Of a stretch of 12,251 nt of DNA, positions 1 through 12,251 are shown piece by piece. The translations under genes were made by a program, and so were the position numbers. This DNA comes from Selenomonas sp. (lineage in GTDB: Bacteria; Bacillota_C; Negativicutes; Selenomonadales; Selenomonadaceae). The notes under the pieces were generated by a model. The model was not told where the DNA came from and did no database searches. It saw only the letters and a program-made list of their open reading frames with translations. The first letter of the stretch is position 1. The number at the start of each line of letters is the position of its first letter. The stretch lies in the NCBI GenBank assembly GCA_017940705.1, contig JAGAYB010000016.1, positions 1 through 12,251 of the forward strand. Reading direction: 5' to 3'.

Positions 1-1
1 A

Positions 2-1501
2 AGCATCATCACAACGGCGTTATGCCGGATTTTTCATCAGGAAGGGCGCAAGGTCGTGCCCTTTAAGGCGCAGAATATGGCGCTTAATTCCTACGTGACC
101 AAAGACGGCCGGGAAATGGGCCGGGCGCAGGTCGCGCAGGCAGAGGCCGCCGGCCTGGAACCCATGGTGGATATGAATCCGGTGCTCTTAAAGCCGACGG
201 GCAATTCCTGTTCGCAGGTGGTGATAAACGGCAAGGCTGTGGGCAATATGAGTGCTAGTGAATATCACAAGGGCTATTCGTTAAAAGCCTTTGGGGCGGT
301 GACAGAGGCTCTGGCACGCCTGCAGAAAGATTTTGACACGTTGGTTATTGAAGGCGCAGGCAGTCCGGCAGAGGTCAATCTCAAAGCCAATGATATTGTC
401 AATATGCGTGTGGCCAAACATTTAAATGCGCCGGTGCTCTTAATTGCCGATATCGACCGGGGCGGAGCTTTGGCCTCACTGGTGGGTACTTTGGAACTTT
501 TGGACGAGGACGAGCGCGCCTTAGTCAAGGGGCTTATCATCAATAAGTTCCGCGGTGATGTGACGCTGCTTACGCCGGCCGTAGACTTTTTGGAGGAAAA
601 GACCGGTAAGCCGGTGCTCGGCATTGTGCCCCATATTGAAAACATGGGCATTGATGATGAAGATTCCGTATCCCTTGATGATAAGGATAATGACGCCGCA
701 GAACAGGCGCAGGCGGATTTGCATATCGCCGTTCTGCAGACACCGAAGATTTCCAACTTCACGGATTTTGACAGCCTGGCGGCGGAACCAGATGTCTCCC
801 TGTACTATGTGCGTAAGGTGGAGGATTTAGGCAATCCCGATATGATTATCCTGCCCGGCTCGAAGAATACGACCGAGGACTTGCTGCATTTGCGTGAGTG
901 TGGCCTGGAAGAGGCTATTCGCGAACAGGTGGCTAAGGGCACGCCGTTATGGGGAATTTGCGGCGGCTATCAGATGCTGGGACAGAAAATTGCTGACCCT
1001 TTGCATACGGAATCGGCCAACGATGAAGTGACAGGCCTGGGCTATCTGCCCATGGCCACGACCTTTGCAGCGGAAAAATTGACAAGTCAGGTACAGGCTG
1101 ACTGTGTTAATTTTTCTTTTCTGGGCCGGCAGATAAAAGCTGAGGGCTTGCATGGTTATGAAATTCATACGGGCGAAACGCAGTTTACCAGGGAAATGAC
1201 GCACCCCTTTAAGCTGACTGACAGGTCAAATCAGACGGTGGCGATTCCCGAAGGTTTGACATGTCAGCTTGACGGTCAGGGACAGGTGACGGGTACCTAT
1301 ATTCATGGTATTTTTGACCATGACACGTTCCGCCGTCAGGTATTAAATGTCCTGCGCGGCCGCAAGGGACTGGCGGATTTGCCTGTCCAGCGCAGTGTGC
1401 GGCAGGAAAAGGAACGGGCGTATAATCGTCTGGCCAGTGTGGTACGGGCCAGTCTCGATATGGAAAAGCTGGCGCAGATTATGGGGGAAACTTCATGCTG
1501 A
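2..1501 (+). CDS. cobQ: Cobyric acid synthase CobQ/CbiP (5'-truncated by window edge)
   Basis: This enzyme makes four glutamine-dependent amidations (side chains b, d, e, g) of adenosylcobyrinic acid a,c-diamide to give adenosylcobyric acid in the cytoplasm. The reading frame is open from base 2, so the true start and the N-terminal P-loop lie upstream of the window. The first visible residues fit the family just after the P-loop, followed by PFKAQNMALNS. Further family marks are GAGSPAEVNL, IADIDRGG (about base 450) and PGSKNT (about 855). The C-terminal glutamine amidotransferase domain shows GICGGYQMLG with the nucleophile Cys at 959-961, GYEIHTGET, and GTYIHGIFDH with the catalytic His at 1304-1306. 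About 500 codons are present, close to full family length. The stop overlaps the next start (ATGCTGA), which implies translational coupling. CobB/CbiA is a relative, but these motifs and the length favour CobQ. Confidence 0.97.
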   Translation, partial: SIITTALCRIFHQEGRKVVPFKAQNMALNSYVTKDGREMGRAQVAQAEAAGLEPMVDMNPVLLKPTGNSCSQVVINGKAVGNMSASEYHKGYSLKAFGAVTEALARLQKDFDTLVIEGAGSPAEVNLKANDIVNMRVAKHLNAPVLLIADIDRGGALASLVGTLELLDEDERALVKGLIINKFRGDVTLLTPAVDFLEEKTGKPVLGIVPHIENMGIDDEDSVSLDDKDNDAAEQAQADLHIAVLQTPKISNFTDFDSLAAEPDVSLYYVRKVEDLGNPDMIILPGSKNTTEDLLHLRECGLEEAIREQVAKGTPLWGICGGYQMLGQKIADPLHTESANDEVTGLGYLPMATTFAAEKLTSQVQADCVNFSFLGRQIKAEGLHGYEIHTGETQFTREMTHPFKLTDRSNQTVAIPEGLTCQLDGQGQVTGTYIHGIFDHDTFRRQVLNVLRGRKGLADLPVQRSVRQEKERAYNRLASVVRASLDMEKLAQIMGETSC

Positions 1502-2436
1502 CAGGAATACTGGCTTTTTTAGTGGACTGCATTATCGGGGACCCCAAGAGCAAGTGGCACCCCGTGGTGCTGATGGGAAATCTGATTTCCCTGTTGGAGC
1601 GCCTGTTTTATCACCCGGCGGATACGGACAGTCGGAAATTTGCCTGGGGCGCGGTGCTGGTGCTGCTGGTACTGTGGCTGACCTATACCGTTGCGGAAGG
1701 AATAATGCTCCTGTCCTACAGGATTCCCTGGAGCTGGGGGCCCATAGCTGTGGGTTCAGTTATGCTGTCCTTTGCTATCTCGCCTAAAAGTCTGGCTAAG
1801 GCTGGCAAGGAACTATACGGCCTGCTGCTGGCCGGGGACATGAGCGAGGCCCGGCGTAAGGTGGGCTGGATTGTCGGCCGGGATACGGATAAACTTGACG
1901 AACCGGAAATCGCCCGGGCTACGGTGGAAACCATTGCCGAAAACACCGTCGATGGCATTATTGCGCCCCTGTTCTTTTTCGTGCTGGGCGGAGTGCCTTT
2001 GGCTATGGCCTATCGGGCAGCAAATACGATGGATTCCATGCTGGGTTACAAAAATGATAAATACCTTTACTTTGGCCGGGCGGCGGCGCGGCTTGATGAT
2101 GTGCTGAACTATATTCCGGCCCGTATCACAGCCGTACTCTTTATCTTTGCGGCGTGGATACTGGGCTATGATTATAAATTTGCTTACCGCATGATGCTCC
2201 GCGATGCGAAGAAACACCCCAGTCCTAACGGCGGTTATGCCGAGGCCACGGTGGCCGGAGCGTTGCATATTCGCCTGGGAGGTTACAACTCCTACTTTGG
2301 GCAGCCGCATTTTCGCGCCTATATGGGGGAACCGTTAGAGGTTTTGAGCATTAAGCATATCATGGGCTCAATCCGGCTTATGTATACGGCCACGGTTATG
2401 TTTATCATTGTCTGCTACGCCATGTTTGGCTTGTGA
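1495..2436 (+). CDS. cbiB: Adenosylcobinamide-phosphate synthase CbiB/CobD
   Basis: This is an integral membrane enzyme that joins adenosylcobyric acid to (R)-1-aminopropan-2-ol or its phosphate, giving adenosylcobinamide (phosphate). Its 313 residues are the normal family length. Family marks are an N-terminal GDP...HPV...MG pattern (D16, P17, H22, P23, G28), ETIAENTVDG at 145-154, YRAANTMDSMLGYKND, ARLDDVLNYIPAR, and HPSPNGG from residue 241. Hydrophobic stretches near 51-75, 155-172, 207-225 and 293-312 fit a multi-pass membrane protein. The ATG lies inside the stop region of cobQ, with a 7-base overlap and no strong ribosome site of its own, so translation is probably coupled to cobQ. It directly follows CobQ in the pathway. 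The symbol cobD is also used for this gene and for an unrelated decarboxylase. Confidence 0.97.
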   Translation: MLTGILAFLVDCIIGDPKSKWHPVVLMGNLISLLERLFYHPADTDSRKFAWGAVLVLLVLWLTYTVAEGIMLLSYRIPWSWGPIAVGSVMLSFAISPKSLAKAGKELYGLLLAGDMSEARRKVGWIVGRDTDKLDEPEIARATVETIAENTVDGIIAPLFFFVLGGVPLAMAYRAANTMDSMLGYKNDKYLYFGRAAARLDDVLNYIPARITAVLFIFAAWILGYDYKFAYRMMLRDAKKHPSPNGGYAEATVAGALHIRLGGYNSYFGQPHFRAYMGEPLEVLSIKHIMGSIRLMYTATVMFIIVCYAMFGL

Positions 2437-2458
2437 TAAGGGAAGGAAATGGAATGAA

Positions 2459-3226
2459 ATGAAATCATTTATTACCGCCCTGCAGTTTTTAACGCGGATT
2501 CATATCTGTACGCAACGGGACTTGACGGCTGAGGATTTTGGCCGCAGTACAAAGTTTTTCCCGTTGGTCGGGGTTATTCTGGGGACTATATATATGCTGG
2601 CCGCCTGGGGGCTGATTGCCGTATTCGGCTGGGCCAATCTGGTGACCACCCTGCTGATAATCCTGCCGGTGCTGCTGACAGGCGGGCTGATGCTCGACGG
2701 TTTTATGGATACCGTGGACGGTGTCTTTTCCGGCCGGGACCGGGAGCGTGTACTGGAAATCATGAAGGACAGCCGCGTGGGCTCCTTCGGGGTAATCGCC
2801 CTGGCCTGTCTGCTGCTCATCAACTGGACGGCGCTCCGTGATGTCAAGCTCATGCTGATTATGACGGCGCTCTTTGTCATGCCGATTATCGGCCGCATGG
2901 CCATGGTCATGGCCATTGCCTGCTTTCCCTATGCACGTAAGGAAGGTATGGGCAAAATATTTGCCGATATGGCCAATAAGAAAACCTTGCTGCTGGCAAT
3001 AGCTGTGACACTGGCCTTTGTGGTTCCCTGGGGGCAGGCAGCTGTCGCCGCTTTGGTGGTGGGGCTTTGCTTTGCCTGGCTGGTGGGCCGCTGGTTGACA
3101 AGTCAACTGGGTGGGCTGACCGGTGACACTTACGGCGCCATTGAAACGCTGACGGAAACGGTGGTACTGCTGGTGTTCTGGGTGACGTCCTGGATACCGG
3201 GCGGCCTGCATATATTTTGGAGATAA
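2459..3226 (+). CDS. cobS: Adenosylcobinamide-GDP ribazoletransferase (cobalamin synthase) CobS
   Basis: CobS is a membrane enzyme that joins adenosylcobinamide-GDP to alpha-ribazole (or its 5'-phosphate), the last assembly step of cobalamin. The start is ATG 2459, giving 255 residues beginning MKSFITALQFLTRI, the usual family N-terminus. An AAGGAA ribosome site lies at 2443-2448. A longer reading from 2408 would overlap cbiB and has no family support. The acidic metal-binding motif is GGLMLDGFMDTVDG (75-88, Asp at 80, 84 and 87), followed by KDSRVGSFGV, GRMAMVMAIACFPYAR and GLTGDTYGA (219-227). Several hydrophobic helices fill the rest. An out-of-frame ATG at 2454 opens a two-codon reading (stop TGA at 2460-2462) across the start, a possible small damper on initiation. 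Only 22 bases separate it from cbiB. CobU and CobT are not in view. Confidence 0.97.
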   Translation: MKSFITALQFLTRIHICTQRDLTAEDFGRSTKFFPLVGVILGTIYMLAAWGLIAVFGWANLVTTLLIILPVLLTGGLMLDGFMDTVDGVFSGRDRERVLEIMKDSRVGSFGVIALACLLLINWTALRDVKLMLIMTALFVMPIIGRMAMVMAIACFPYARKEGMGKIFADMANKKTLLLAIAVTLAFVVPWGQAAVAALVVGLCFAWLVGRWLTSQLGGLTGDTYGAIETLTETVVLLVFWVTSWIPGGLHIFWR

Positions 3227-3253
3227 CGGACTCATGTTATGGAGGTGCTGGGT

Positions 3254-4006
3254 GTGAGTAATAAAAATTGGCAGTTTTACGATATGGTCATCAACGGCCT
3301 GCCACAGCGTGTAAAATACAATGAGGATACGGTAAACTCTTTGTTTATACCTTTGCTGCAAAAATTGACGGAGATACAGCAACGTGAGCAGCGCCGGGTA
3401 ATGGCCTTTCTGGCTGCACCGCCGGCCACGGGAAAATCAACCTTGTTGCAGTTTCTGGAACAACTGTCACATGAGCAGGCAGGTACGCAGGCCGTGCAGG
3501 CTTTGGGCATGGACGGCTTTCATTATCCCAATGCTTATCTGGAGGCACATACGATAGAACGTGACGGAAAGACCATAACGCTCAGGTCAATTAAAGGCGC
3601 ACCGGAAACTTTTGACGTGGCAGGTTTAAGGGCAAAGATACAAGAGGCCAAGCAGGGGAAATCCCTCTGGCCTGTATATGACCGCAAGCTGCACAATCCC
3701 ATTCCTGACGCGCTTGTAGTAAACAGCAATATTTTGCTGGTGGAGGGCAACTGGCTGCTGCTCAATGAACCGCAGTGGCGTGACTTGCATGAACTGGCTG
3801 ATTACACACTTAGTATAAAAGTGGCACCGGAACTCCTAAAAGACCGCCTTATTCAGCGCAAAATACAGGGAGGCCTGTCCGAAAAAGACGCTGTAAATTT
3901 CTACGAAACCAGCGACCGCCTGAATGTAGAACGTATATTAAACAATCAAGTCCCAGCCGATGAACAATGGCAAATGTTCGCGGACGGGGACTTCATAAAA
4001 TGCTGA
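3254..4006 (+). CDS. P-loop nucleoside/nucleotide-type kinase (YggC-like family)
   Basis: This is a probable cytoplasmic kinase of the uridine kinase/pantothenate kinase-like P-loop group; the substrate cannot be read from the sequence. With the GTG start at 3254 it has 250 residues. GTG is preferred because a strong GGAGGTG ribosome site sits at 3241-3247, six bases upstream; the more upstream ATG at 3239 overlaps that site. The Walker A-like loop is AAPPATGKST (54-63), with Ala in place of the usual first Gly. MDGFHYPN (Asp87) resembles the substrate-binding loop of this group. KGAPETFDV, VYDRKLHNPIPDA and LLVEGNWLLL (Walker B-like region) follow, then a lid-like RLIQRKIQGGLSEKDA. It follows cobS by 27 bases and precedes the operon terminator, so it is probably cotranscribed with the cob genes. 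A cobalamin-related role is only suggested by position. Confidence 0.85.
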   Translation: MSNKNWQFYDMVINGLPQRVKYNEDTVNSLFIPLLQKLTEIQQREQRRVMAFLAAPPATGKSTLLQFLEQLSHEQAGTQAVQALGMDGFHYPNAYLEAHTIERDGKTITLRSIKGAPETFDVAGLRAKIQEAKQGKSLWPVYDRKLHNPIPDALVVNSNILLVEGNWLLLNEPQWRDLHELADYTLSIKVAPELLKDRLIQRKIQGGLSEKDAVNFYETSDRLNVERILNNQVPADEQWQMFADGDFIKC

Positions 4007-4013
4007 TAATTTG

Positions 4014-4048
4014 AAACCGCACACGGCAGCAGGCTGTGTGCGGTTTTT
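4014..4048 (+). terminator. Intrinsic terminator of the cob operon
   Basis: AAACCGCACAC at 4014-4024 pairs perfectly with GTGTGCGGTTT at 4036-4046. The stem may extend inward by three more pairs (one G-U), leaving a five-base loop, and a T5 tract (4044-4048) overlaps its base and follows it. It begins 8 bases after the kinase stop codon. It separates the cob operon from the CRISPR locus, so cas3 must use its own promoter. Confidence 0.93.
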
Positions 4049-4307
4049 GTCGCTTAGGGGATAACCGCAAAGTATTCTGAAAAATGAGTAATAGCATGAT
4101 ATAACTAGTTCATGGTATACGTTAATCTGATTCATACCCTTAAAAAGTGATTGAAATTTAACTAATGTGAGATTTCGATTGCTTTTTTCTCCAAATGAAG
4201 TGAACCTGGATGTTTTCTGGCACTGATACTGGCAATAGATGCATTTTAATATTGTTTGACACAGTTCAGCCAGTCATTCTTAAACAAGAAGAAATAATAA
4301 TAATAGA
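4049..4307. other. AT-rich intergenic stretch, no gene recognised
   Basis: This lies between the cob terminator and the promoter of the crRNA-like element. No reading frame with a family resemblance is visible, and I see no remnant of cas1 or of the Cas2 domain. A near-palindrome centred on AACTAGTT (4103-4110) and a lone TTGACA (4256-4261) without a good partner box are present. Neither is strong enough to name. Confidence 0.6.
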
Positions 4308-4336
4308 TTGACAATTACATATAACTTTGGTATAAA
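4308..4336 (+). promoter_or_regulatory. Near-consensus sigma-70 promoter upstream of the crRNA-like element
   Basis: A perfect TTGACA (4308-4313), an exact 17-base spacer and TATAAA (4331-4336) predict transcription starting near 4343. This would produce RNA through the two degenerate repeats at 4392-4473, and possibly on into cas3. It is a better match to consensus than anything directly upstream of cas3. That suggests the small RNA is made constitutively and in excess over the cas mRNA. Confidence 0.8.
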
Positions 4337-4391
4337 TAATAAACGGGAGGTGTTTACGCTGCTGATTGATAGTGCAGGAATGCAAGAGTCA

Positions 4392-4421
4392 GTTTACCGC
4401 TGAAAAAGTGCGGCTTAGAAG
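4392..4421 (+). repeat. Degenerate CRISPR repeat 1 of the crRNA-like element
   Basis: This begins GTTTACCGC and ends GCGGCTTAGAAG, against GTTAACCGC...GCGGCTTAGAAA in the leader-proximal array repeats. The four outer base pairs of the Cas6f hairpin remain (CCGC 4397-4400 with GCGG 4410-4413). The fifth pair has become T-T, and the loop is enlarged to nine bases including the T-T (TGAAAAAGT). The 8-nt handle left on a crRNA after Cas6f cleavage is almost intact (CTTAGAAG, 4414-4421). This conservation outside any array suggests that processing is still selected. Confidence 0.85.
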
Positions 4422-4465
4422 GTTTGTACTTTTGATGTTGCGATTTAGTTACCGCCGTGAGGTGG
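4414..4465 (+). ncRNA. Predicted crRNA-like regulatory RNA (CreR type) aimed at the cas3 upstream region
   Basis: If Csy4 cuts both degenerate repeats at the standard place, the mature RNA has three parts. They are an 8-nt 5' handle (4414-4421), a 26-nt guide (4422-4447), and an 18-nt 3' part with a stem-loop (4448-4465). Normal crRNAs of this locus would be 8+32+20. The guide is 6 nt short, which equals one Cas7f segment. It matches the + strand from 4502 at positions 1-5 (GTTTG), 7-11 (ACTTT) and 13-15 (GAT), with an I-F PAM (CC) at 4500-4501. In the first 15 only positions 6 and 12 mismatch, and these are flipped out in type I complexes. Past 15 the match is poor (17 of 26 overall), so binding without Cas3 cutting is expected. 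Autoregulatory crRNA-like RNAs are known from other CRISPR types; the role here is inferred. Confidence 0.8.
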
Positions 4466-4473
4466 CTTGGGGA
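4448..4473 (+). repeat. Degenerate CRISPR repeat 2 of the crRNA-like element
   Basis: This begins GTTACCGCC and continues GTGAGGTGGCTTGGGGA. The five-pair hairpin is preserved (CCGCC 4452-4456 with GGTGG 4461-4465, including one G-T pair), with a four-base GTGA loop. The 8-nt handle has decayed to CTTGGGGA. In type I-F, Cas6f stays bound to the 3' stem-loop of the crRNA, so the hairpin is the part of this repeat that the RNA needs. The handle would belong to a following guide that does not exist. The pattern of conservation and decay fits a single-guide element. Confidence 0.8.
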
Positions 4474-4499
4474 ATTTTGTATGGTGATATATTTATATA

Positions 4500-4527
4500 C
4501 CGTTTGAACTTTAGATTATAATTTTGA
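4500..4527 (+). promoter_or_regulatory. Predicted Csy-complex target (PAM plus protospacer) over the cas3 promoter/leader
   Basis: CC at 4500-4501 is the type I-F PAM on the guide-identical strand. It is followed by a 26-base site matching the guide at 4422-4447 with a seed interrupted only at positions 6 and 12. The site covers the TATAAT at 4517-4522 and ends 11 bases before the ATG of cas3 at 4539. Binding would block RNA polymerase at that box or stall transcripts coming from the 4308 promoter. The crRNA would pair with the template strand of cas3. Confidence 0.75.
4517..4522 (+). promoter_or_regulatory. Candidate -10 box of a cas3-proximal promoter
   Basis: TATAAT is a perfect -10 hexamer. 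At 16-18 bases upstream only AT-rich sequence (TTATAT/TATATA near 4493-4499) stands in for a -35, and there is no TG extension, so the promoter may be weak or activator-dependent. It would start RNA near 4529, leaving a leader of only about 10 bases before ATG 4539. Its position inside the predicted Csy target is the main reason to list it. Confidence 0.45.
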
Positions 4528-4538
4528 GATTGAAAATC

Positions 4539-7466
4539 ATGATGAAATATATGAATTTACTTTCAGGCATACTGGCACTTACCGCACTGTTGCACGATTG
4601 GGGGAAAGCAAATGACGCTTTCCAGGAATCGTTGCGAAAGAAGAAGGCGAGAGATTGCTACCGACATGAGTGGCTTAGCTGCAAGCTGGTGGAGAATCTT
4701 TGTGCTGCTGCTGATAACGATGCTGATTGGCTTCAGCAGCTTGCCGAAGGAAAAATTGATGAAAAGGCTCTTATCGAGGCAATACAAAAAAACTATGCAC
4801 AGGAGATAGGTGAAATGCCACCTATTGCCAGTATGATTTGCTGGCTGATTTTGTGCCATCATCGAATGCCAACGCTGGAAAAGGATGATTGCGCTGGTTT
4901 CGTGAAAGCCGAGGGTAGTTCTTTTCAAGAGGTGCTTTCTTTAATTGAGCCTGAGTGGGGATATAAGAAAACTGAAGAAGTGAAAATCCCCCTGTTTTCC
5001 AAGGGCTTGTTGCTTGATTCGACAGTTTGGCTTCAGAAGCTGAAGGAGGCCAGTCAGGCAGTGCTGGATGAACAAGATGGGCTCCTGGAAATATGGGAAG
5101 CTGACAATACGAGAATTTTCTTATTGCAGGCGAGAATTTGCCTGATGCTGGCGGATTACACTGTTTCATCAGAGGAGGCTGATAAAACATGGAAAGGTGG
5201 GCGACATGTTTTATATGCTAATACCTGCCAAGGAAAGCTGAAGCAGAAACTTGCTGAACATCTTGTTCGTGTTTCTCAACAGGCTGTTCAGACAGCTATT
5301 GTCTTGCCGAAACTCATGGCTGGTATGAAACAGGCAAAAAATGTGGAAAAACTCCAACAGGCAAGTGCATTGCCAGATTTTGTCTGGCAGGACTTGGCAG
5401 TTCAGGCTGTGCGTGAAAATAAGGCGCAGATTGAGGATGAGGTCGGTTGGTTTGTAGTCAATATGGCTGGAACAGGCTGCGGCAAAACCTTTGCCAATGC
5501 CAAGCTGGCCATGGCTATCTCGAAAGATGGAGAATCCCTGAGGTATAGCCTCCTGCTGGGGCTTAGAAGCCTTACACTGCAAACTGGCGACGAGTATCGT
5601 AGCCGTGTAAAGTTGAACGAAGATGATATGGCTGTATTGATTGGTTCTGCTACGGTCAAGGAACTGCATGAACGCTTGAGAGTTGGAAAAGAAGAGTTTG
5701 AGACCGCTTGGGATGACAATAGTGATACTGCAAACATGAATGAGCTTTTGCCTGGTGATATTTATGGTGGCGTTGCTCAGGGAGAAGAGGTTTTGGCGGC
5801 ACTATTTCCTCAGCACAATAAAGTTGCAAGCCAAAAGCACCGCAGATTGCTATATGCGCCTGTGCTGGTGTCCACCATCGACCATCTTATGCCAAGCACG
5901 GAAAGCATTCGCGGGGGACGTTATATGCTGCCTGTGCTGAGGATGATGACGGCTGATATTGTCATTGATGAGATAGATGATTTCACAGGCAGTGATTTGG
6001 TAGCAATAGCAAGGCTTACGCATTTGGCTGGCATGCTGGGGCGCAATGTGATATTGTCATCGGCAACTATCCCGCCTGATTTGTCTGAAGGCTTGTTTTC
6101 TGCCTATAAAAGTGGACGGGCACTTTATGCTCGTTTCTTTGGCAAAAGCAATGCTATCAACTGTGTCTGGTGTGATGAGTTCATGACTGAAGTAAAACTG
6201 ATGGACAACCAAAAAGCAGATGATTTCAGGATGGCTCATGCTGCATATGTTGAGAGCCATTGCAAGAAACTTCTGGTTCAGCCGCCGAAAAGATGGGCCT
6301 GGATAAAGGATTGCAGTGATATTTTGAACAAAACAGGCGATGAGCGGCGAAAAGCATATTGCGAATCTATGAAAGAAGCGGCGGTCATCCTTCACCATAA
6401 TTACTTCGTAACAGATAAGAAAACAAATAAGAAAGTATCAATTGGTCTAGTCAGGACAGCGAATATCAGGCTTTGTGTGGAAGTTGCCAAGTATTTCGTG
6501 GAGACAGCCGTGTGGCCAGAGAATATGGCACCGAGGATTATGGTGTATCATAGCAGGCAGACACTGCTTTTGCGAACTTTGCAGGAGAAATATCTTGATG
6601 GAGCCTTGAAACGCAAGGGGCAGGACACGGAGAAGATTGATTTTACAGATAGTGTGATGCGTAAGCACATAGACGAAGCAGAAGAAAATAATATTTTGTT
6701 TATTGTCATAGCTACACCTATTGAGGAAGTAGGCCGAGACCATGATTTTGACTGGGCCATATTGGAGCCATCTTCGTATCGCTCGCTCATTCAGTTGGCT
6801 GGTCGTATTCGCAGGCATAGACGTGCTTTCAAGGCCAAAGCTTTAGGCAATATCTGTATAATGCAATATAATATGTTGGCTTTGGAGGGGAAAAAGATAG
6901 CATACACCTTGCCGGGCTTTGAATGTGAGGAATATGTCCTGGATACGCATGATTTACAGCAACTGGTAGATGTTGAGGGCTTGGCCGAGAGAGTAGATGC
7001 CATACCTAGAGTCAGTAGGCGGGAAAGTTTATCACCCAAGAGAAGATTCATAGATCTGGAGCATCAGGTATTGAGCGATTTTCGCAATCTTTCAAATGTG
7101 GGGGCTGCCTTTATTCACGGCTGGCAGGATGAGTATTGGTATTTGACTGGTTTGCCGCAAACTTTGAATCCTTTCCGGGAGGGGGAAAAAGATAGAGAAT
7201 TGTATTTAAGAAAGGATGACGTGGGGCGGTATAGATTCTATGAAATAGATGAGGTGTCTGGGGATTTTCAGCTGATTGAAGAAACCTATGACATTGTTCA
7301 CGCCGAGGTTGATGAAAGTGAGAAGTTTTGGCTTGAGAGGGACTATGGCACCGCAAGCGGGGGGGACAAGGAATGGAGTTATAGAGTGGGACTGCTGACT
7401 ATTTCTGAGAAGAAACGCGAGCGCATCTATTCTGACCAATATGGCATGGTTGAGCTTGTTAGGTGA
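4539..7466 (+). CDS. cas3: CRISPR-associated nuclease-helicase Cas3 (type I-F), lacking the Cas2 domain
   Basis: Cas3 is recruited by the target-bound Csy complex and unwinds and degrades the displaced DNA strand. Residues are numbered from a possible TTG start at 4524. The HD nuclease motifs are HDWGK (H24, D25, K28), YRHEW (H48) and CHHRMP (H112, H113). The helicase has Walker A GTGCGKT (316-322), DEID (482-485), SSAT (512-515) and motif VI QLAGRIRRH (757-765). ATG 4539 is chosen; ATG 4542 and TTG 4524 are also possible, none has a strong ribosome site, and an in-frame stop at 4512 bars any longer protein. Family I-F Cas3 is normally about 1,050-1,100 residues with an N-terminal Cas2 domain of about 95. 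Here the protein starts right at the HD domain, so Cas2 is missing while the interference domains look intact. It heads the cas operon; csy1 follows after 12 bases. Confidence 0.95.
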   Translation: MMKYMNLLSGILALTALLHDWGKANDAFQESLRKKKARDCYRHEWLSCKLVENLCAAADNDADWLQQLAEGKIDEKALIEAIQKNYAQEIGEMPPIASMICWLILCHHRMPTLEKDDCAGFVKAEGSSFQEVLSLIEPEWGYKKTEEVKIPLFSKGLLLDSTVWLQKLKEASQAVLDEQDGLLEIWEADNTRIFLLQARICLMLADYTVSSEEADKTWKGGRHVLYANTCQGKLKQKLAEHLVRVSQQAVQTAIVLPKLMAGMKQAKNVEKLQQASALPDFVWQDLAVQAVRENKAQIEDEVGWFVVNMAGTGCGKTFANAKLAMAISKDGESLRYSLLLGLRSLTLQTGDEYRSRVKLNEDDMAVLIGSATVKELHERLRVGKEEFETAWDDNSDTANMNELLPGDIYGGVAQGEEVLAALFPQHNKVASQKHRRLLYAPVLVSTIDHLMPSTESIRGGRYMLPVLRMMTADIVIDEIDDFTGSDLVAIARLTHLAGMLGRNVILSSATIPPDLSEGLFSAYKSGRALYARFFGKSNAINCVWCDEFMTEVKLMDNQKADDFRMAHAAYVESHCKKLLVQPPKRWAWIKDCSDILNKTGDERRKAYCESMKEAAVILHHNYFVTDKKTNKKVSIGLVRTANIRLCVEVAKYFVETAVWPENMAPRIMVYHSRQTLLLRTLQEKYLDGALKRKGQDTEKIDFTDSVMRKHIDEAEENNILFIVIATPIEEVGRDHDFDWAILEPSSYRSLIQLAGRIRRHRRAFKAKALGNICIMQYNMLALEGKKIAYTLPGFECEEYVLDTHDLQQLVDVEGLAERVDAIPRVSRRESLSPKRRFIDLEHQVLSDFRNLSNVGAAFIHGWQDEYWYLTGLPQTLNPFREGEKDRELYLRKDDVGRYRFYEIDEVSGDFQLIEETYDIVHAEVDESEKFWLERDYGTASGGDKEWSYRVGLLTISEKKRERIYSDQYGMVELVR

Positions 7467-7478
7467 GGAGGGGTAAGG

Positions 7479-8612
7479 TTGAGTGTTTTTCTGGATGAAC
7501 TTGCAAATAAAGCCAAAAAGGATAAGGATTTGAGGGACTGTTTGCTTAGACTGGCCGATAATGCCTGCAAAATCGAACTGGCTACACATATCGGCAAATA
7601 TACAGATCCTGAACTGCAGATAAATTATTGCGTGGCTACGGATGGCGTGACTGACAGTAATTATGTGATGACTAAGAATGTGAATTGCCAAGTTGATATG
7701 TATAGCAGTGCCTCATATGCTGCAACCAGCAGTTTGCTGACCAAAAAACTGGAGGATGGCAGGACAGTATATCAGCATCTCAATAATGATGATATGTTGC
7801 GGGAAGATATAGAATCACTTGGCCTTGCTTATGATGAAATCAAAGAAAAGCTACTTGCTTTCAAGAAACCTGATAGTCATGCGCCCATAGGGAATAAGCT
7901 TAGGCAAGTGTTTTTTCCTATCGGAGATACAGATCACCTGCTGTCAGTCATGCAGCCTGCCTGCATTATCCAGGAATTGGCAGCTAGGACAAGGGCGATG
8001 AGGGAGTTGAAATTTGCGGCACGAAAGCCGGAGGCTGATATTGAAGAATACAGTGAGATTTATGGGATGGTGAGCACAAAAATAGGAGGTGCCAATGCAC
8101 AAAACGTGTCTATAGGGACTACTGGCATGGATGCGAAAATGTTGTTGTCAATGCCCCCAAAATTCGAAAAACGAGTCATGCTGCCTAGAAATGATTTTTT
8201 CAAAGAAAAAGTGTGGTTCAATAACAAATTCAAGGATGTATATAGTCATATCTGCAAGTGTTATAGCACTACTTGGGAAAATAAGCAGAATCGGGAGATA
8301 CTAGGCTATTACTGGTCCAAAGTCATTGATGAGATATATAGGAATGTGTACGAGTTGCGTGCGCAGCAGCAAGGCTGGAGTGAAAATGTAAATCTGCCCA
8401 GGGAACAGGCTATTTGGCTGGATGATAAATATGTTGATGAACGTTATGACAGTGATGAGTGGAAGCAGAAAGTTATCTTGGACTTTGCAAGAAGGCTGAG
8501 GGAGTTTTTTATTGAGGCCTGGAAAAATGAATATAAAACTGAAATCACACCTGATGATAAATTTTTGGATAATTTAAAAGAGAAAGTCCTTGAGGTCGTT
8601 CAGTCAGAGTGA
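7479..8612 (+). CDS. csy1: Type I-F CRISPR-associated protein Csy1 (Cas8f)
   Basis: This is the large subunit of the Csy (type I-F Cascade) complex; with Csy2 it holds the crRNA 5' handle and reads the PAM. The start is TTG 7479, with an AGGAGGGG ribosome site at 7466-7473 that overlaps the cas3 stop. The product has 377 residues, shorter than the roughly 430 of the Pseudomonas aeruginosa protein. The clearest family mark is GGANAQNVSIG (203-213) followed by LLSMPP (222-227), matching the GGxxxQNxS...LLxSxPP pattern of Csy1. GDTDHLLSVMQP and the basic C-terminal region also fit. The sequence is otherwise divergent, as Csy1 usually is. Position between cas3 and csy2 supports the call. Confidence 0.93.
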   Translation: MSVFLDELANKAKKDKDLRDCLLRLADNACKIELATHIGKYTDPELQINYCVATDGVTDSNYVMTKNVNCQVDMYSSASYAATSSLLTKKLEDGRTVYQHLNNDDMLREDIESLGLAYDEIKEKLLAFKKPDSHAPIGNKLRQVFFPIGDTDHLLSVMQPACIIQELAARTRAMRELKFAARKPEADIEEYSEIYGMVSTKIGGANAQNVSIGTTGMDAKMLLSMPPKFEKRVMLPRNDFFKEKVWFNNKFKDVYSHICKCYSTTWENKQNREILGYYWSKVIDEIYRNVYELRAQQQGWSENVNLPREQAIWLDDKYVDERYDSDEWKQKVILDFARRLREFFIEAWKNEYKTEITPDDKFLDNLKEKVLEVVQSE

Positions 8613-8646
8613 TGGTTGTGGTGTGTTGATCAGAGGTGAGAGCCTG

Positions 8647-9552
8647 ATGGATAAAACTTATTTGTTGTTTTCTAAAATGAAGGTACATAATGCTAATGCA
8701 GCCAGTTCAGCGTATACCATAGGGGTACCGGCTATGACTGCATGGACAGGTTTCATGTATGCGCTGGAGCGATATGTCAGAACCCAATGCAAGCTGGAGG
8801 AAGTGAGATTTACCGGTATTGCGGTATCGTATCATGAATGTGAGCTGCAGACGTATAGACTGGATGAATATAGGACGAATATTGTTGGGTATGCCAAGCC
8901 GCCTAAGCTGGATGGCAATGATGGTGGTATAAAGGCTGCTTCATTCATTGAAGAAGCAAGGTGTCATATGTGCGTGAGCCTCCTTATCGAGCTTGAAGGC
9001 GTGAATGGCAAGAATGAAAAGAAGCTGTTGCATGCCGTCAGGGAGCGAATGCCGCGCATGAAAGCTGCTGGGGGAGATATTTGGACAATATTTGACGAGA
9101 AAAATTTAAACGTCCACTATGTCAGGGATGAAAAGTCTATGTATAAGGTTAGGGCTAGATTGATGGTTGGCGCCATGCTCAAGGAGCGTCTGGATCTTAT
9201 ACAGCCAACTGAGGCGCATGATGCGCTGGATTGTCTCATGGATATTCAGAGGGTAATGCATAAGAAGATTGTCGAAGGGCAGGAAGATTCTAAGAAGGTG
9301 CGCTGGGAAAGCAGCAAATTCATTGACAAGGGCTGGCTGGTACCTATAGCTGTGGGGTTTTGTGATTTGTCCGGCCCTACTGATAAGCTAGAGGGGCAGC
9401 GTGATTATGGCTATGAGCATCACTTTGTTGAGCCGATAGTCACGGTAGGTGAATTTATGATGCCGCATAGATTCAATACCCTCGATGAAATGATGTGGCG
9501 TTATGATTATGATGAGGTCAATGGTCTTTATCTTTGCAGACAGGCAATGTAA
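8647..9552 (+). CDS. csy2: Type I-F CRISPR-associated protein Csy2 (Cas5f)
   Basis: This is the Cas5-like subunit that caps the crRNA 5' handle together with Csy1. ATG 8647 is preferred: it has an AGGTG ribosome site at 8634-8638 and gives 301 residues starting MDKTYLLFSKMKV, close to the roughly 325 of known members. A longer reading from 8590 would overlap csy1 and adds 19 unlike residues. Family marks are the early GVPAMTAWTGFMYALER stretch, then GWLVPIAVGFCDLSG, the RDYGYEHHFVEPIVTVGE region and MMPHRF near the C-terminus. A 34-base gap follows the csy1 stop and a 21-base gap precedes csy3, within one operon. Confidence 0.94.
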   Translation: MDKTYLLFSKMKVHNANAASSAYTIGVPAMTAWTGFMYALERYVRTQCKLEEVRFTGIAVSYHECELQTYRLDEYRTNIVGYAKPPKLDGNDGGIKAASFIEEARCHMCVSLLIELEGVNGKNEKKLLHAVRERMPRMKAAGGDIWTIFDEKNLNVHYVRDEKSMYKVRARLMVGAMLKERLDLIQPTEAHDALDCLMDIQRVMHKKIVEGQEDSKKVRWESSKFIDKGWLVPIAVGFCDLSGPTDKLEGQRDYGYEHHFVEPIVTVGEFMMPHRFNTLDEMMWRYDYDEVNGLYLCRQAM

Positions 9553-9573
9553 TCAGAAAAGGAGAAATGTGAT

Positions 9574-10614
9574 ATGGCTAAGAAGAATGCGGCTAACAAT
9601 ATGAAACTTCCCTCTCTGCTGGCGTATGAGAAGAAGATTGTTCCCTCCGATGGACATTTATATGGCACTGTTTGGGACGATGCTCATACTAATGAGATTG
9701 TGCCGCTCAAACTTACAGAGAAAGCAGTGCGTGGCACTGATTCTACTTTGCAGAAAAATTCCAAAGCCGATACTGAAGACAAATTTGAAGCACGGATTAC
9801 GATGGCTAATTTGCAGACAGTTGATACCTGTATGTTGGGGGTGAAGCAGGATACAATAGTGCTGACTTTTACATTGAAGATCATGAGTGGCGTAGAAATT
9901 CCGATAGCTTGCAATGATATAGCATTTTATGATAATTACTACGCTAAGGTCAAAGAGTATATAAAGAAAACTGGATGCCGGGAGTTGGGGCATCGTTACG
10001 CTACTAATATAGCCAATGGCCGGTTCTTGTGGCGCAATCGCTTGGGAGCAGAAAAGATTGATGTTCAGGTGAAGGCTGATGATTTGGAGGCAACGTTCTC
10101 AGCATATGACTATTCTCTGCGAAATTTCGATAAACATGATGAAAAACTAGATGAGTTGGCGGGGAAGATTGCATCAGCCCTGTCTGGCGAAATTCCTTAT
10201 TTGTATGTCGAGGTAAAGGCATATGCAAAGGTGGGATTAGGCCAGGAAGTTTATCCTAGTGAGGAATTGGTATTCAACAAGGGCAAGGGGGATAAGAGTA
10301 AGATCCTGTATCAGTCAAACAACATTGCAGCTATGCATTCTCAGAAAATCGGCAATGCGTTGCGCACGATTGACACTTGGTATCCTGGCTATCCTGACAA
10401 AGAAAATTCGCCTGTTCTGGCTGTTGAGGTCTATGGTGCAGTAACTACCAGGGGGAGGGCCTTCCGTAATCCGAACAGCAAGCAAGATTTTTATACCCTG
10501 TTTAAGAAATATATGTTTGGAAACGAACCTTTGACGAATGAAGAGGCTGATTATGTAGCAGCAGTTCTCATACGTGGTGGTGTATTCGGTGAGAGTGACA
10601 AAAAGGGTGAGTGA
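9574..10614 (+). CDS. csy3: Type I-F CRISPR-associated protein Csy3 (Cas7f), backbone subunit
   Basis: In the Csy complex six copies form the crRNA-binding backbone. Each covers a six-nucleotide segment, and its thumb flips out every sixth base. The ATG has AAGGAG at 9559-9564. The 346 residues are close to the P. aeruginosa protein (about 342), and this is the best conserved gene of the set. Marks in order are LPSLLAYEKKIVPSD, EKAVRGT, NLQTVDTCML, ACNDIAFYDNYY, RYATNIANGRFLWRNRLGAE, GQEVYPSEEL, HSQKIGNALRTIDTWYPGY, DFYTLFKKYM and LIRGGVFGE. It is 3 bases from csy4, so the two are probably translated together. Confidence 0.98.
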   Translation: MAKKNAANNMKLPSLLAYEKKIVPSDGHLYGTVWDDAHTNEIVPLKLTEKAVRGTDSTLQKNSKADTEDKFEARITMANLQTVDTCMLGVKQDTIVLTFTLKIMSGVEIPIACNDIAFYDNYYAKVKEYIKKTGCRELGHRYATNIANGRFLWRNRLGAEKIDVQVKADDLEATFSAYDYSLRNFDKHDEKLDELAGKIASALSGEIPYLYVEVKAYAKVGLGQEVYPSEELVFNKGKGDKSKILYQSNNIAAMHSQKIGNALRTIDTWYPGYPDKENSPVLAVEVYGAVTTRGRAFRNPNSKQDFYTLFKKYMFGNEPLTNEEADYVAAVLIRGGVFGESDKKGE

Positions 10615-10617
10615 ACT

Positions 10618-11208
10618 ATGGTGAAATATTATCAGGAGTTGACAATACTGCCGGATGGTGAGGTCAATGAAAATCATATATGGGGCAAGCTGTATCAGTC
10701 GGTGCATATTGCATTGTCAGACAAGATGGAGGAGAGGGGGCGCATTGGTGTTTCTTTTCCTCACTACAGCCTGGATGGGTTGGGGGACAAACTAAGGATT
10801 TTTGCTGAGACAGAAGAAGATCTGTTAGCGCTGAATATGCAGCAGCAGGTGGCCAGGTATCGTGATTATGTCCATGTCAAGGGCATCGCCAAGATACCTA
10901 AGCATGTTGCATGGGCTACTTTCAGGCGCAGGCATAACAAAGGCAATCCTGCTAAATTAGCAAGAAGATATGCCAAAAGGCACAATGTTTCTTTTGATGA
11001 GGCCATCAACCTTTTCTCAGAGCAGGAGCATAGGAAACAGGAGCATAGGAAACAGGAGCATAGGAAACTGCCTTATGTAGTGCTGCGCAGTGACAGCAAT
11101 GGATATGAGTACCGTTTGTCTATAGAGAAAATAGACAAAGAGGAAGTTGTTGAGATGGGGTTTGGGAGCTATGGATTGGATAATCAATCTACTGTGCCTG
11201 TGTTTTGA
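10618..11208 (+). CDS. csy4: CRISPR RNA endoribonuclease Csy4 (Cas6f)
   Basis: Csy4 cuts the array transcript at the 3' base of each repeat hairpin and stays bound to the crRNA 3' stem-loop. The product has 196 residues (P. aeruginosa 187); the ribosome site AGGGTGA sits about 8 bases before ATG. Conserved marks are RIGVSFP, KLRIFA, the basic segment FRRRHNKGNPAKLARRYAKRH that grips the hairpin, LPYVVLRSDSNG carrying the catalytic-site Ser, and the YGL...VPVF end. The catalytic His (H29 in P. aeruginosa, in KLHQAL) aligns with Tyr26 in a simple alignment; His30, in YQSVHIAL, is the likely true counterpart. A QEHRK peptide is repeated three times in the linker before LPYVV. Both the main array and the crRNA-like element would be its substrates. 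Confidence 0.96.
   Translation: MVKYYQELTILPDGEVNENHIWGKLYQSVHIALSDKMEERGRIGVSFPHYSLDGLGDKLRIFAETEEDLLALNMQQQVARYRDYVHVKGIAKIPKHVAWATFRRRHNKGNPAKLARRYAKRHNVSFDEAINLFSEQEHRKQEHRKQEHRKLPYVVLRSDSNGYEYRLSIEKIDKEEVVEMGFGSYGLDNQSTVPVF
11023..11067 (+). repeat. Three perfect 15-bp tandem copies inside csy4
   Basis: The unit CAGGAGCATAGGAAA is repeated three times without change, at 11023-11037, 11038-11052 and 11053-11067. It is in frame and encodes QEHRK each time. Perfect identity indicates a recent expansion, and the number of copies probably varies between strains. It falls in a linker rather than in a catalytic motif. Confidence 0.95.
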
Positions 11209-11338: not shown

Positions 11339-12251
11339 GTTAACCGCCGTGTAGGCGGCTTAGAAAACCAGTCTCTTACGGACTGCTGGGCTTCTTCAGT
11401 TAACCGCCGTGTAGGCGGCTTAGAAAAGCTTTGCGGCGGCTATGACCAGCTGCTACATGTATTCCGCCGTATAGGCGGCTTAGAAATCCTTGTAGGTGTA
11501 GCAAAGCACCGGCGTGTTGTATTCCGCCGTATAGGCGGCTTAGAAAATACGGTCCTTAATGGAGTGACCACTATAGCCGTATTCCGCCGTATAGGCGGCT
11601 TAGAAATTGGAGAGCATAAGCACCTTTTGGGCATCGCCGTATTCCGCCGTATAGGCGGCTTAGAAATCTATCATGCCTTCGTTTTGCAGCCATTTTTTGT
11701 ATTCCGCCGTATAGGCGGCTTAGAAATTACCCCAGACAACGATACGATGGAAATACGTGTATTCCGCCGTATAGGCGGCTTAGAAAACACGACGGCCTCC
11801 CGGTGAAAACATACGACAGTATTCCGCCGTATAGGCGGCTTAGAAATTGCAGTTTTCAAAATGACGAGCAAAGTCCTTGTATTCCGCCGTATAGGCGGCT
11901 TAGAAATGAATTCGTGCCACGCGCCATGGTGCCGTCTCGTATTCCGCCGTATAGGCGGCTTAGAAAGTCTATCAATGTCACCGGCATGAATAAGCAGTGT
12001 ATTCCGCCGTATAGGCGGCTTAGAAAGTTCGGGCGGTGAAAAAATCGAACCGCTGTTCGTATTCCGCCGTATAGGCGGCTTAGAAACTGTCGAGGGAACG
12101 GATTGTAGACTCACGGTTGTATTCCGCCGTATAGGCGGCTTAGAAAATAGGTGAATCTATGATGCCTGCGGCGGCGTATTTCGCCGTATAGGCGGCTTAG
12201 AAATCTTTGAAGATGAAAAGAAGGTGCAAACTCTCGTATTCCGCCGTATAG
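11339..12251 (+). CRISPR. Type I-F CRISPR array, 15 spacers visible, continues past the window
   Basis: Repeats of 28 bp recur every 60 bp from 11339 to 12119, then at 12176 and (cut at its 16th base) 12236. Each has the I-F form: a 5-nt lead, stem CCGCC, loop GTATA, stem GGCGG and handle CTTAGAAA. The handle at the 3' side of the repeat and the upstream leader show transcription on the + strand. Spacers are 32 nt except spacer 14 (12147-12175), which is 29. The consensus lead is GTATT. Repeats 1 and 2 instead have GTTAA and loop GTGTA (four differences), and repeat 15 has C6 changed to T, leaving a G-T pair. Comparing the 15 spacers by eye with this window shows no match, so their targets lie elsewhere. 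Confidence 0.99.

What the first reader, a model, noticed from the sequence alone, without database searches (positions are those of the whole stretch)
4392..4527. A hidden crRNA-like RNA upstream of cas3 that appears to target the cas3 promoter region (type I-F autoregulation)
Two degenerate copies of the array repeat flank a 26-nt guide, outside any array and behind a near-consensus promoter. From its first base the guide matches DNA starting at 4502, directly after CC (4500-4501), the correct I-F PAM on the correct side. Positions 1-5, 7-11 and 13-15 match, and the match fades after 15. This seed-only design fits binding without cleavage, so the locus would not destroy itself. The site covers TATAAT at 4517-4522, just upstream of cas3. 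Autoregulatory crRNA-like guides are known for other CRISPR types; this I-F case with a Cas2-less Cas3 may be undescribed. A feedback loop would raise cas expression when Csy complexes are scarce or blocked, for example by an anti-CRISPR protein.
Basis: partly seen in the sequence, partly recalled or inferred. Interest (0 to 1): 0.95.

Follow-up and report, generated by a model that had tools for sequence, protein, structure and literature searches.

The report
CRISPR guide that likely silences itself
Just upstream of a bacterial type I-F CRISPR operon lies a small CRISPR-like unit whose guide matches, beside the correct PAM, the DNA in front of the operon's first gene; it would likely let the CRISPR complex turn down its own production, and similar units lie near the cas genes of other type I-F systems.

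Summary
At window 4392-4473 two degenerate repeats flank a 26-nt guide behind TTGACA-17-TATAAA. Beside CC at 4500-4501 the guide matches 13 of its first 15 bases; only positions 6 and 12 mismatch. In relative L001, at another chromosomal place, position 13 changed identically in guide and target. Relative G167 lost promoter, first repeat and guide in a 142-nt deletion but keeps target, cas genes and an array.

Among 89 distinct I-F loci, 25 (window and L001 included) carry such a unit; the same score is reached by 3 of 9740 shuffled guides and 0 of 534 array spacers. In 20 of 24 the target lies at most 114 nt before a csy1 or cas3 start. Seven Selenomonas units match their own targets 13/13, unlike pairs 6-10/13.

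Best reading: a type I-F CreR, predicted to guide the Csy complex to repress its own operon. CreR is reported for I-B, I-E and V-A, and a toxin-repressing relative (CreA) for I-F; my searches listed no I-F CreR. Processing, binding and repression are untested.

The parts
4308..4336 (+). Promoter-like TTGACA-17-TATAAA in front of the guide unit
   Evidence: Coordinates; kept in L001; deleted in G167
4392..4421 (+). psiR1, degenerate first repeat (30 nt) ending in the 8-nt handle CTTAGAAG (4414-4421)
   Evidence: hairpin CCGC/GCGG of only 4 pairs with 9-nt loop, -5.9 kcal/mol, 32 of 200 shuffles fold as well
4422..4447 (+). 26-nt guide (array spacers are mostly 32 nt)
   Evidence: pairs with 4502-4516 except positions 6 and 12
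4448..4473 (+). psiR2, degenerate second repeat (5-pair stem, GTGA loop)
   Evidence: -8.3 kcal/mol, 39 of 200 shuffles fold as well; kept in L001 and, less its first base's context, in G167
4485..4493 (+). TGaTATATT, candidate extended -10 for cas3 (inferred)
   Evidence: Kept in window, L001 and G167; no experimental start site
4500..4501 (+). CC, I-F PAM of the target
   Evidence: PAM CC for I-F stated in PMC10097628 section 6
4502..4527 (+). Target of the guide (paired part 4502-4516)
   Evidence: kept in L001 and G167
4539..7466 (+). cas3f without the Cas2 part (ATG 4539 chosen by conservation with L001; an upstream TTG at 4524 is in frame)
7479..11208 (+). csy1, csy2, csy3, csy4 (cas6f)
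11339..12251 (+). CRISPR array, 15 whole repeats seen, cut by the window end

Best explanation
The unit at 4308-4473 is a crRNA-like guide unit in front of a type I-F cas operon, and it likely works as a CreR: its RNA would be cut out by Cas6f (Csy4), load into the Csy complex and lead it to the CC-flanked site at 4500-4527, where it is predicted to block transcription of cas3-csy1-4. Pairing ends at about base 15, so Csy would bind without licensing Cas3 to cut (inferred). Array crRNAs would compete for the same Csy proteins, so repression should ease when Csy is scarce, saturated or blocked by an anti-CRISPR (inferred from what reviews report for CreR in other subtypes). Shown here: anatomy, PAM, pairing pattern, co-variation, recurrence near cas genes in other I-F loci, one natural loss. 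Not shown: transcription, processing, binding, repression.
For: Anatomy and PAM. Match rare by chance: 4 of 20000 shuffles near cas3, 34 of 20000 in the window. Position 13 changed alike in guide and target of L001. Module with the unit found at a different chromosomal place in L001, homology starting at 4283 just before the promoter. Survey: 25 units in 89 distinct loci; shuffled guides 3 of 9740 and reversed guides 0 of 487, array spacers on the same regions 0 of 534. Without a PAM rule 26 of 39 strong hits follow CC (one of the 26 is an array artefact). Mismatches cluster at 6 and 12: 26 of 52 against 6.1 expected when no position is skipped. Seven Selenomonas units: own targets 13/13, unlike pairs 6-10. 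20 of 24 targets lie at most 114 nt before a csy1 or cas3 start; seven S. ruminantium-type targets are followed, 18-21 nt from their first base, by a 10-12 of 12 sigma-70-like promoter. In I-F Acinetobacter a 20-nt CreA guide represses through Csy and needs neither Cas1 nor Cas3 (PMC10097628). In E. coli I-E about 5 bp suffice for binding and more than 18 bp are needed for interference (abstract of PMC5904413).
Against: No RNA or binding data. Positions 16 and 17 mismatch in window and L001, whereas pairs 13-17 were each needed for the Acinetobacter CreA, so repression may be weak. psiR1 has a 4-pair stem with a 9-nt loop; neither pseudo-repeat of the window folds better than its shuffles (z about -1), and L001's psiR1 is predicted to fold in a shifted register, so Cas6f cutting is uncertain. 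The cas3 promoter is unknown: the best promoter motif at the window's target is 8 of 12 and TATAAT is not conserved. G167 keeps target and cas genes without the guide, so the guide is dispensable there. 64 of 89 distinct loci showed no unit by this test, some of them cut short by contig ends. The position-13 co-variation is a single event.
Confidence: 0.74

Rival explanations
1. It is the creA half of a CreTA addiction module: the guide represses a small toxin RNA rather than the cas operon.
For: I-F CreTA exists in Acinetobacter with the same kind of unit (PMC10097628). The leader between promoter and psiR1 has an SD-like GGGAGG (4345-4350) and a 21-nt block (4359-4379) identical in L001 (by eye), and CreT there is a short ORF behind an SD.
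Against: Target end and cas3 ATG are 21 nt apart, leaving no room for a toxin gene behind the target on the + strand. The leader block lies upstream of the guide and its promoter is not the target. G167 lost the guide and kept the target, although the deletion took the leader too. Toxicity was not tested and the minus strand was not searched for small toxins.
Confidence: 0.08
2. It is a relic: the decayed remains of an old array or a captured self-spacer with no present role.
For: Both repeats are degenerate, psiR1 folds weakly, and G167 has lost the guide.
Against: Mismatches sit at 6 and 12, not at random; guide, PAM and target are kept in L001 with a matching change at position 13; the same pattern recurs in unrelated I-F loci.
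Confidence: 0.07
3. The guide does direct Csy to 4500-4527, but mainly as a roadblock to transcripts coming from the unit's own promoter, which would itself drive cas3; the proximal promoter is minor.
For: No terminator was found between unit and cas3, and promoter motifs at the window's target are weak.
Against: In S. ruminantium-type loci the target directly precedes a strong promoter-like motif leading into csy1; G167 lacks the distal promoter but keeps open cas frames.
Confidence: 0.09

Closest known systems
CreR, cas-regulating RNA (Liu et al. 2023, Cell Host Microbe 31:1481; not held; known here from passages of reviews PMC13131331, PMC12737573, PMC12948488)
   Same: crRNA-like mini-CRISPR unit with limited complementarity to a cas promoter region; no toxin gene coupled
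   Different: Reported for I-B, I-E and V-A; here the subtype is I-F and the target lies between a conserved -10-like site and the cas3 ATG
CreTA of I-F Acinetobacter (PMC10097628; sections 6, 9, 15 read, other passages seen)
   Same: Two degenerate repeats, short guide, CC PAM, partial match with a mismatch at position 6, Csy as effector
   Different: There the target controls a toxin RNA with a 33-bp mini-ORF in a ~400-bp cas3-csy1 gap; here the target directly precedes cas3. There the unpaired guide positions are 6, 11 and 18; here 6 and 12
Archaeal and bacterial CreTA with degenerate repeats (PMC9458426, abstract and outline seen)
   Same: First repeat more diverged than the second
   Different: Toxin-linked
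Cas9 autorepression (mentioned in PMC13131331)
   Same: Effector represses its own expression and anti-CRISPRs relieve it
   Different: Type II effector; no Cas9 was found among the window proteins scanned

Membership tests
CreR | crRNA-like unit outside the array, with repeat-like flanks | tested here: met
CreR | Guide partly complementary to the cognate cas promoter region, with the subtype's PAM | tested here: met
   CC at 4500-4501, 13 of 15 bases, 21 nt before cas3 ATG; that this is the promoter is inferred
CreR | Not coupled to a toxin gene | tested here: inconclusive
   No room behind the target on the + strand, but a conserved leader block with an SD-like site lies before psiR1
CreR | Processed RNA bound by the Cas effector | not testable with these tools
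   Only folds: weak psiR1 hairpin
CreR | Represses cas expression; relieved by crRNA competition or anti-CRISPR | not testable with these tools
   Needs a reporter
CreTA (I-F) | Toxin RNA gene behind the target | tested here: not met
   Target end to cas3 ATG is 21 nt
CreTA (I-F) | Loss of the guide is lethal or arresting | tested here: inconclusive
   G167 lacks the guide but the same deletion removed the leader
Type I-F CRISPR-Cas | Cas3f, Csy1-Csy4, I-F repeat | tested here: met
Type I-F CRISPR-Cas | Cas1 and a Cas2-Cas3 fusion | tested here: not met
   Cas2 part missing; the I-F Cas1 model found nothing in either relative G001 or G167, 0 of 2; the window's own genome is not held

The most novel reading that the evidence does not exclude
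Type I-F systems broadly carry their own guide-RNA brake: a dedicated CreR-type unit, in tandem with or divergent from the cas promoter, whose seed co-evolves with its target while positions 6 and 12 run free. It recurs in Bacillota, Pseudomonadota and Campylobacterota and would make I-F cas output self-sensing and anti-CRISPR-responsive; the window shows an interference-only module that took its brake along when it replaced a resident I-F system.
Probability: 0.6. Interest if true: 0.78.

Novelty: new variant of a known kind. Interest (0 to 1): 0.7.

Why it matters
In the papers that my searches listed (several lists were capped and judged by title and abstract start) I saw toxin control by an I-F guide but no I-F guide that controls cas itself. 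If these units act as predicted, I-F cells sense the pool of free Csy complexes and raise cas output when it is titrated or blocked, which bears on how anti-CRISPRs work in practice. The survey gives 20 non-redundant guide-target pairs, a ready set for testing how much pairing separates silencing from cutting, and G167 is a natural loss to compare with.

Tried and rejected
One search listed no forward promoter and no terminator in 4000-4700 (one minus-strand promoter match); the TTGACA/TATAAA pair was found by eye and rests on its letters and its presence in L001. Rfam at gathering thresholds listed two array repeats only. Viral contigs, searched with Cas3, and plasmids, searched with 4000-5200, gave no match. 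CreTA was judged unlikely for lack of room behind the target, a captured self-spacer or relic unlikely from the mismatch pattern. A first, looser scan (its output was cut) listed many hits of 11-12 of 15 anywhere in a locus; these are near chance and were not counted. In one search one hit of 13 (L051 10468, an array piece) was dropped before the counts. Of 39 hits of at least 13 without a PAM rule, 13 do not follow CC; they come from six loci (L003, L021, L038, L040, L051, L122) and look mostly like array, tandem or inverted repeats (not examined one by one). With no position skipped, shuffled guides reach 13 of 17 in 16 of 9720 against 29 of 486 real candidates, one of them (the L051 piece) dropped; the 23 non-redundant ones include three hits outside the first set (L040, L073 and one of the two in L125). 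Four of 24 units (L014, L017, L038, L080) leave 189-417 nt between target and cas start and could be CreTA; L072 has no csy1 on its contig. A literature search for the Csy4 loop fold listed nothing used here.

Full report
WHAT IS THERE. After cobalamin genes (recognised by eye) and a nucleoside kinase ending at 4006 the window carries a type I-F locus: cas3 (ATG 4539), csy1, csy2, csy3, csy4 and an array from 11339. Cas3 matches TIGR02562 from profile position 115, so the Cas2 part is missing. Between kinase and cas3 lie TTGACA 4308-4313, 17 nt, TATAAA 4331-4336; psiR1 4392-4421; guide 4422-4447; psiR2 4448-4473; CC 4500-4501; target from 4502.

CHANCE. Scoring positions 1-17 without 6 and 12, the guide gets 13 of 15 at 4502; the next CC site in the window gets 9. 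Shuffled guides reach 13 in 4 of 20000 in 4100-4640 and in 34 of 20000 in the whole window.

CLOSE RELATIVES. L001 (Selenomonas MAG, water deer rumen) has the module at another place, behind what looks like a chemotaxis receptor gene (by eye). Homology to the window begins at 4283 and runs at 94% to the contig end, inside csy1. In the 13 paired positions guide and target each have one change, both at 13 and both G to A; the mismatches at 6 and 12 are kept. G167 (Cas3 88% identical) has the same upstream gene sequence as L001 but lacks the stretch equivalent to window 4307-4448, 142 nt: promoter, psiR1 and guide are gone, while psiR2, PAM, target, cas genes and an array remain. So the guide is dispensable there. 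This fits a regulator better than an antitoxin, although the deletion also took the leader. The TATAAT of the finding is absent from both relatives; TGaTATATT at 4485-4493 is in all three. Among 189 genomes of the family, the stretch 4283-4640 found its two long matches in G001 (the genome of L001) and G167; six more genomes had short matches, five of them within the cas3 start.

SURVEY. Loci: the window, the best 80 of 306, and nine; 89 distinct. One search took every hairpin followed by a handle within two changes of CTTAGAAA or CTAAGAAA and outside arrays (487 candidates) and sought a CC-flanked match within 400 nt. Twenty-six reach 13 of 15; one array piece was dropped, leaving 25 units in 25 loci, window and L001 included, 20 of them non-redundant. 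Controls: shuffled guides 3 of 9740 and reversed guides 0 of 487; array spacers on the same regions 0 of 534, best 12. Without a PAM rule 26 of 39 hits follow CC, one of the 26 being the array piece. The other 64 distinct loci gave no unit by this test; some contigs are cut short.

PAIRING PATTERN. In the 20 non-redundant units the matches at positions 1-18 are 20, 20, 20, 19, 20, 10, 20, 18, 20, 20, 19, 4, 20, 20, 19, 14, 16, 7, and at 19-26 between 5 and 11. Because that selection skipped 6 and 12, selected on all 17 positions: 28 units, 23 non-redundant, 26 of 52 mismatches at 6 and 12 against 6.1 expected (binomial P about 1.5e-11, treating mismatches as independent). That every sixth base of a type I guide is flipped out is recalled; it explains the pattern, which plain duplication or spacer capture would not.

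CO-VARIATION. Seven Selenomonas units between cas3 and csy1 match their own targets 13 of 13. Three of them share their first 17 guide bases; all other pairs match 6-10. In three of the seven, 1.9-3.9 kb lie between cas3 and csy1.

PLACE OF TARGETS. In 20 of 24 units with a visible downstream gene at most 114 nt separate target and cas start codon; in the window it is 21 nt to ATG 4539. In the seven S. ruminantium-type units a 10-12 of 12 sigma-70-like promoter begins 18-21 nt after the target's first base and leads into csy1; L013, L048 and L125 also have 10 or 11 of 12; the rest are weaker, the window 8, and L014 none. In L015, L019, L048, L060 and L075 the unit points away from csy1 with the target between them. 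By record titles (phyla by knowledge) the units fall in Bacillota (Negativicutes), Pseudomonadota and Campylobacterota.

MECHANISM. Likely: Cas6f cuts the two hairpins, Csy loads the RNA, sits at 4500-4527 and blocks transcription. In E. coli I-E as few as 5 bp allow binding and more than 18 bp are needed for interference (abstract of PMC5904413); 15 or fewer pairs would bind without cutting. In I-F Acinetobacter a 20-nt CreA represses through Csy and works without Cas1 or Cas3 (PMC10097628: sections 6, 9 and 15 read, other passages seen). There pairs 13-17 were each needed, and the window lacks 16 and 17, so its repression may be weak. The hairpins are a weak point: psiR1 has four pairs and a 9-nt loop, and neither window repeat folds clearly better than its shuffles.

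KNOWN OR NEW. CreR is stated for I-B, I-E and V-A (PMC13131331 passages) and for type I and V-A in general (PMC12737573 passages). The primary paper is not held, so an I-F entry in it cannot be excluded. Searches listed no paper that by title, abstract start or the passages seen describes an I-F CreR; some searches showed part of their lists only. I therefore call it a new variant of a known kind.

ORIGIN OF THE LOCUS. Window 1400-4052 is 96% identical to G162 (the part held), where other genes follow in the next 1.5 kb; window 1-4052 is about 81% identical to L113 and L115, where I-F systems sit at the same site. The array starts with two repeats of the G167 type and goes on with 13 of the type also seen in L006 and L008, one of the 13 with a single change. 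The cas operon with its guide unit seems to have replaced a resident system (inferred).

Noticed in passing
window 1-4052 and 11339-12251: Host flank and most array repeats look S. ruminantium-like, while the cas operon and the first two repeats are of the L001/G167 type: a likely cassette replacement at a shared I-F site.
   Followed up: partly
window 4345-4379: Between promoter and psiR1: SD-like GGGAGG, then a 21-nt block (4359-4379) identical in L001, perhaps a mini-ORF (by eye). Role unknown; a CreT-like leader is not excluded.
   Followed up: no
window 4539-7466; G001, G167: I-F Cas3 without its Cas2 part; the I-F Cas1 model finds nothing in either relative genome (0 of 2): an interference-only I-F variant.
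   Followed up: partly
window 4455-4461: psiR2 loop is GTGA in the window and GCGA in L001, both of the GNRA kind (folds); that Csy4's usual loop is GNRA-like is recalled.
   Followed up: no
L017 9396-9476: On the unit's own strand the target is followed by TTGACA, so this guide may also repress its own promoter (sequence).
   Followed up: no
window 12147-12203: One 29-nt spacer among 32-nt ones, followed by a repeat with one change (GTATTTCGCC).
   Followed up: no
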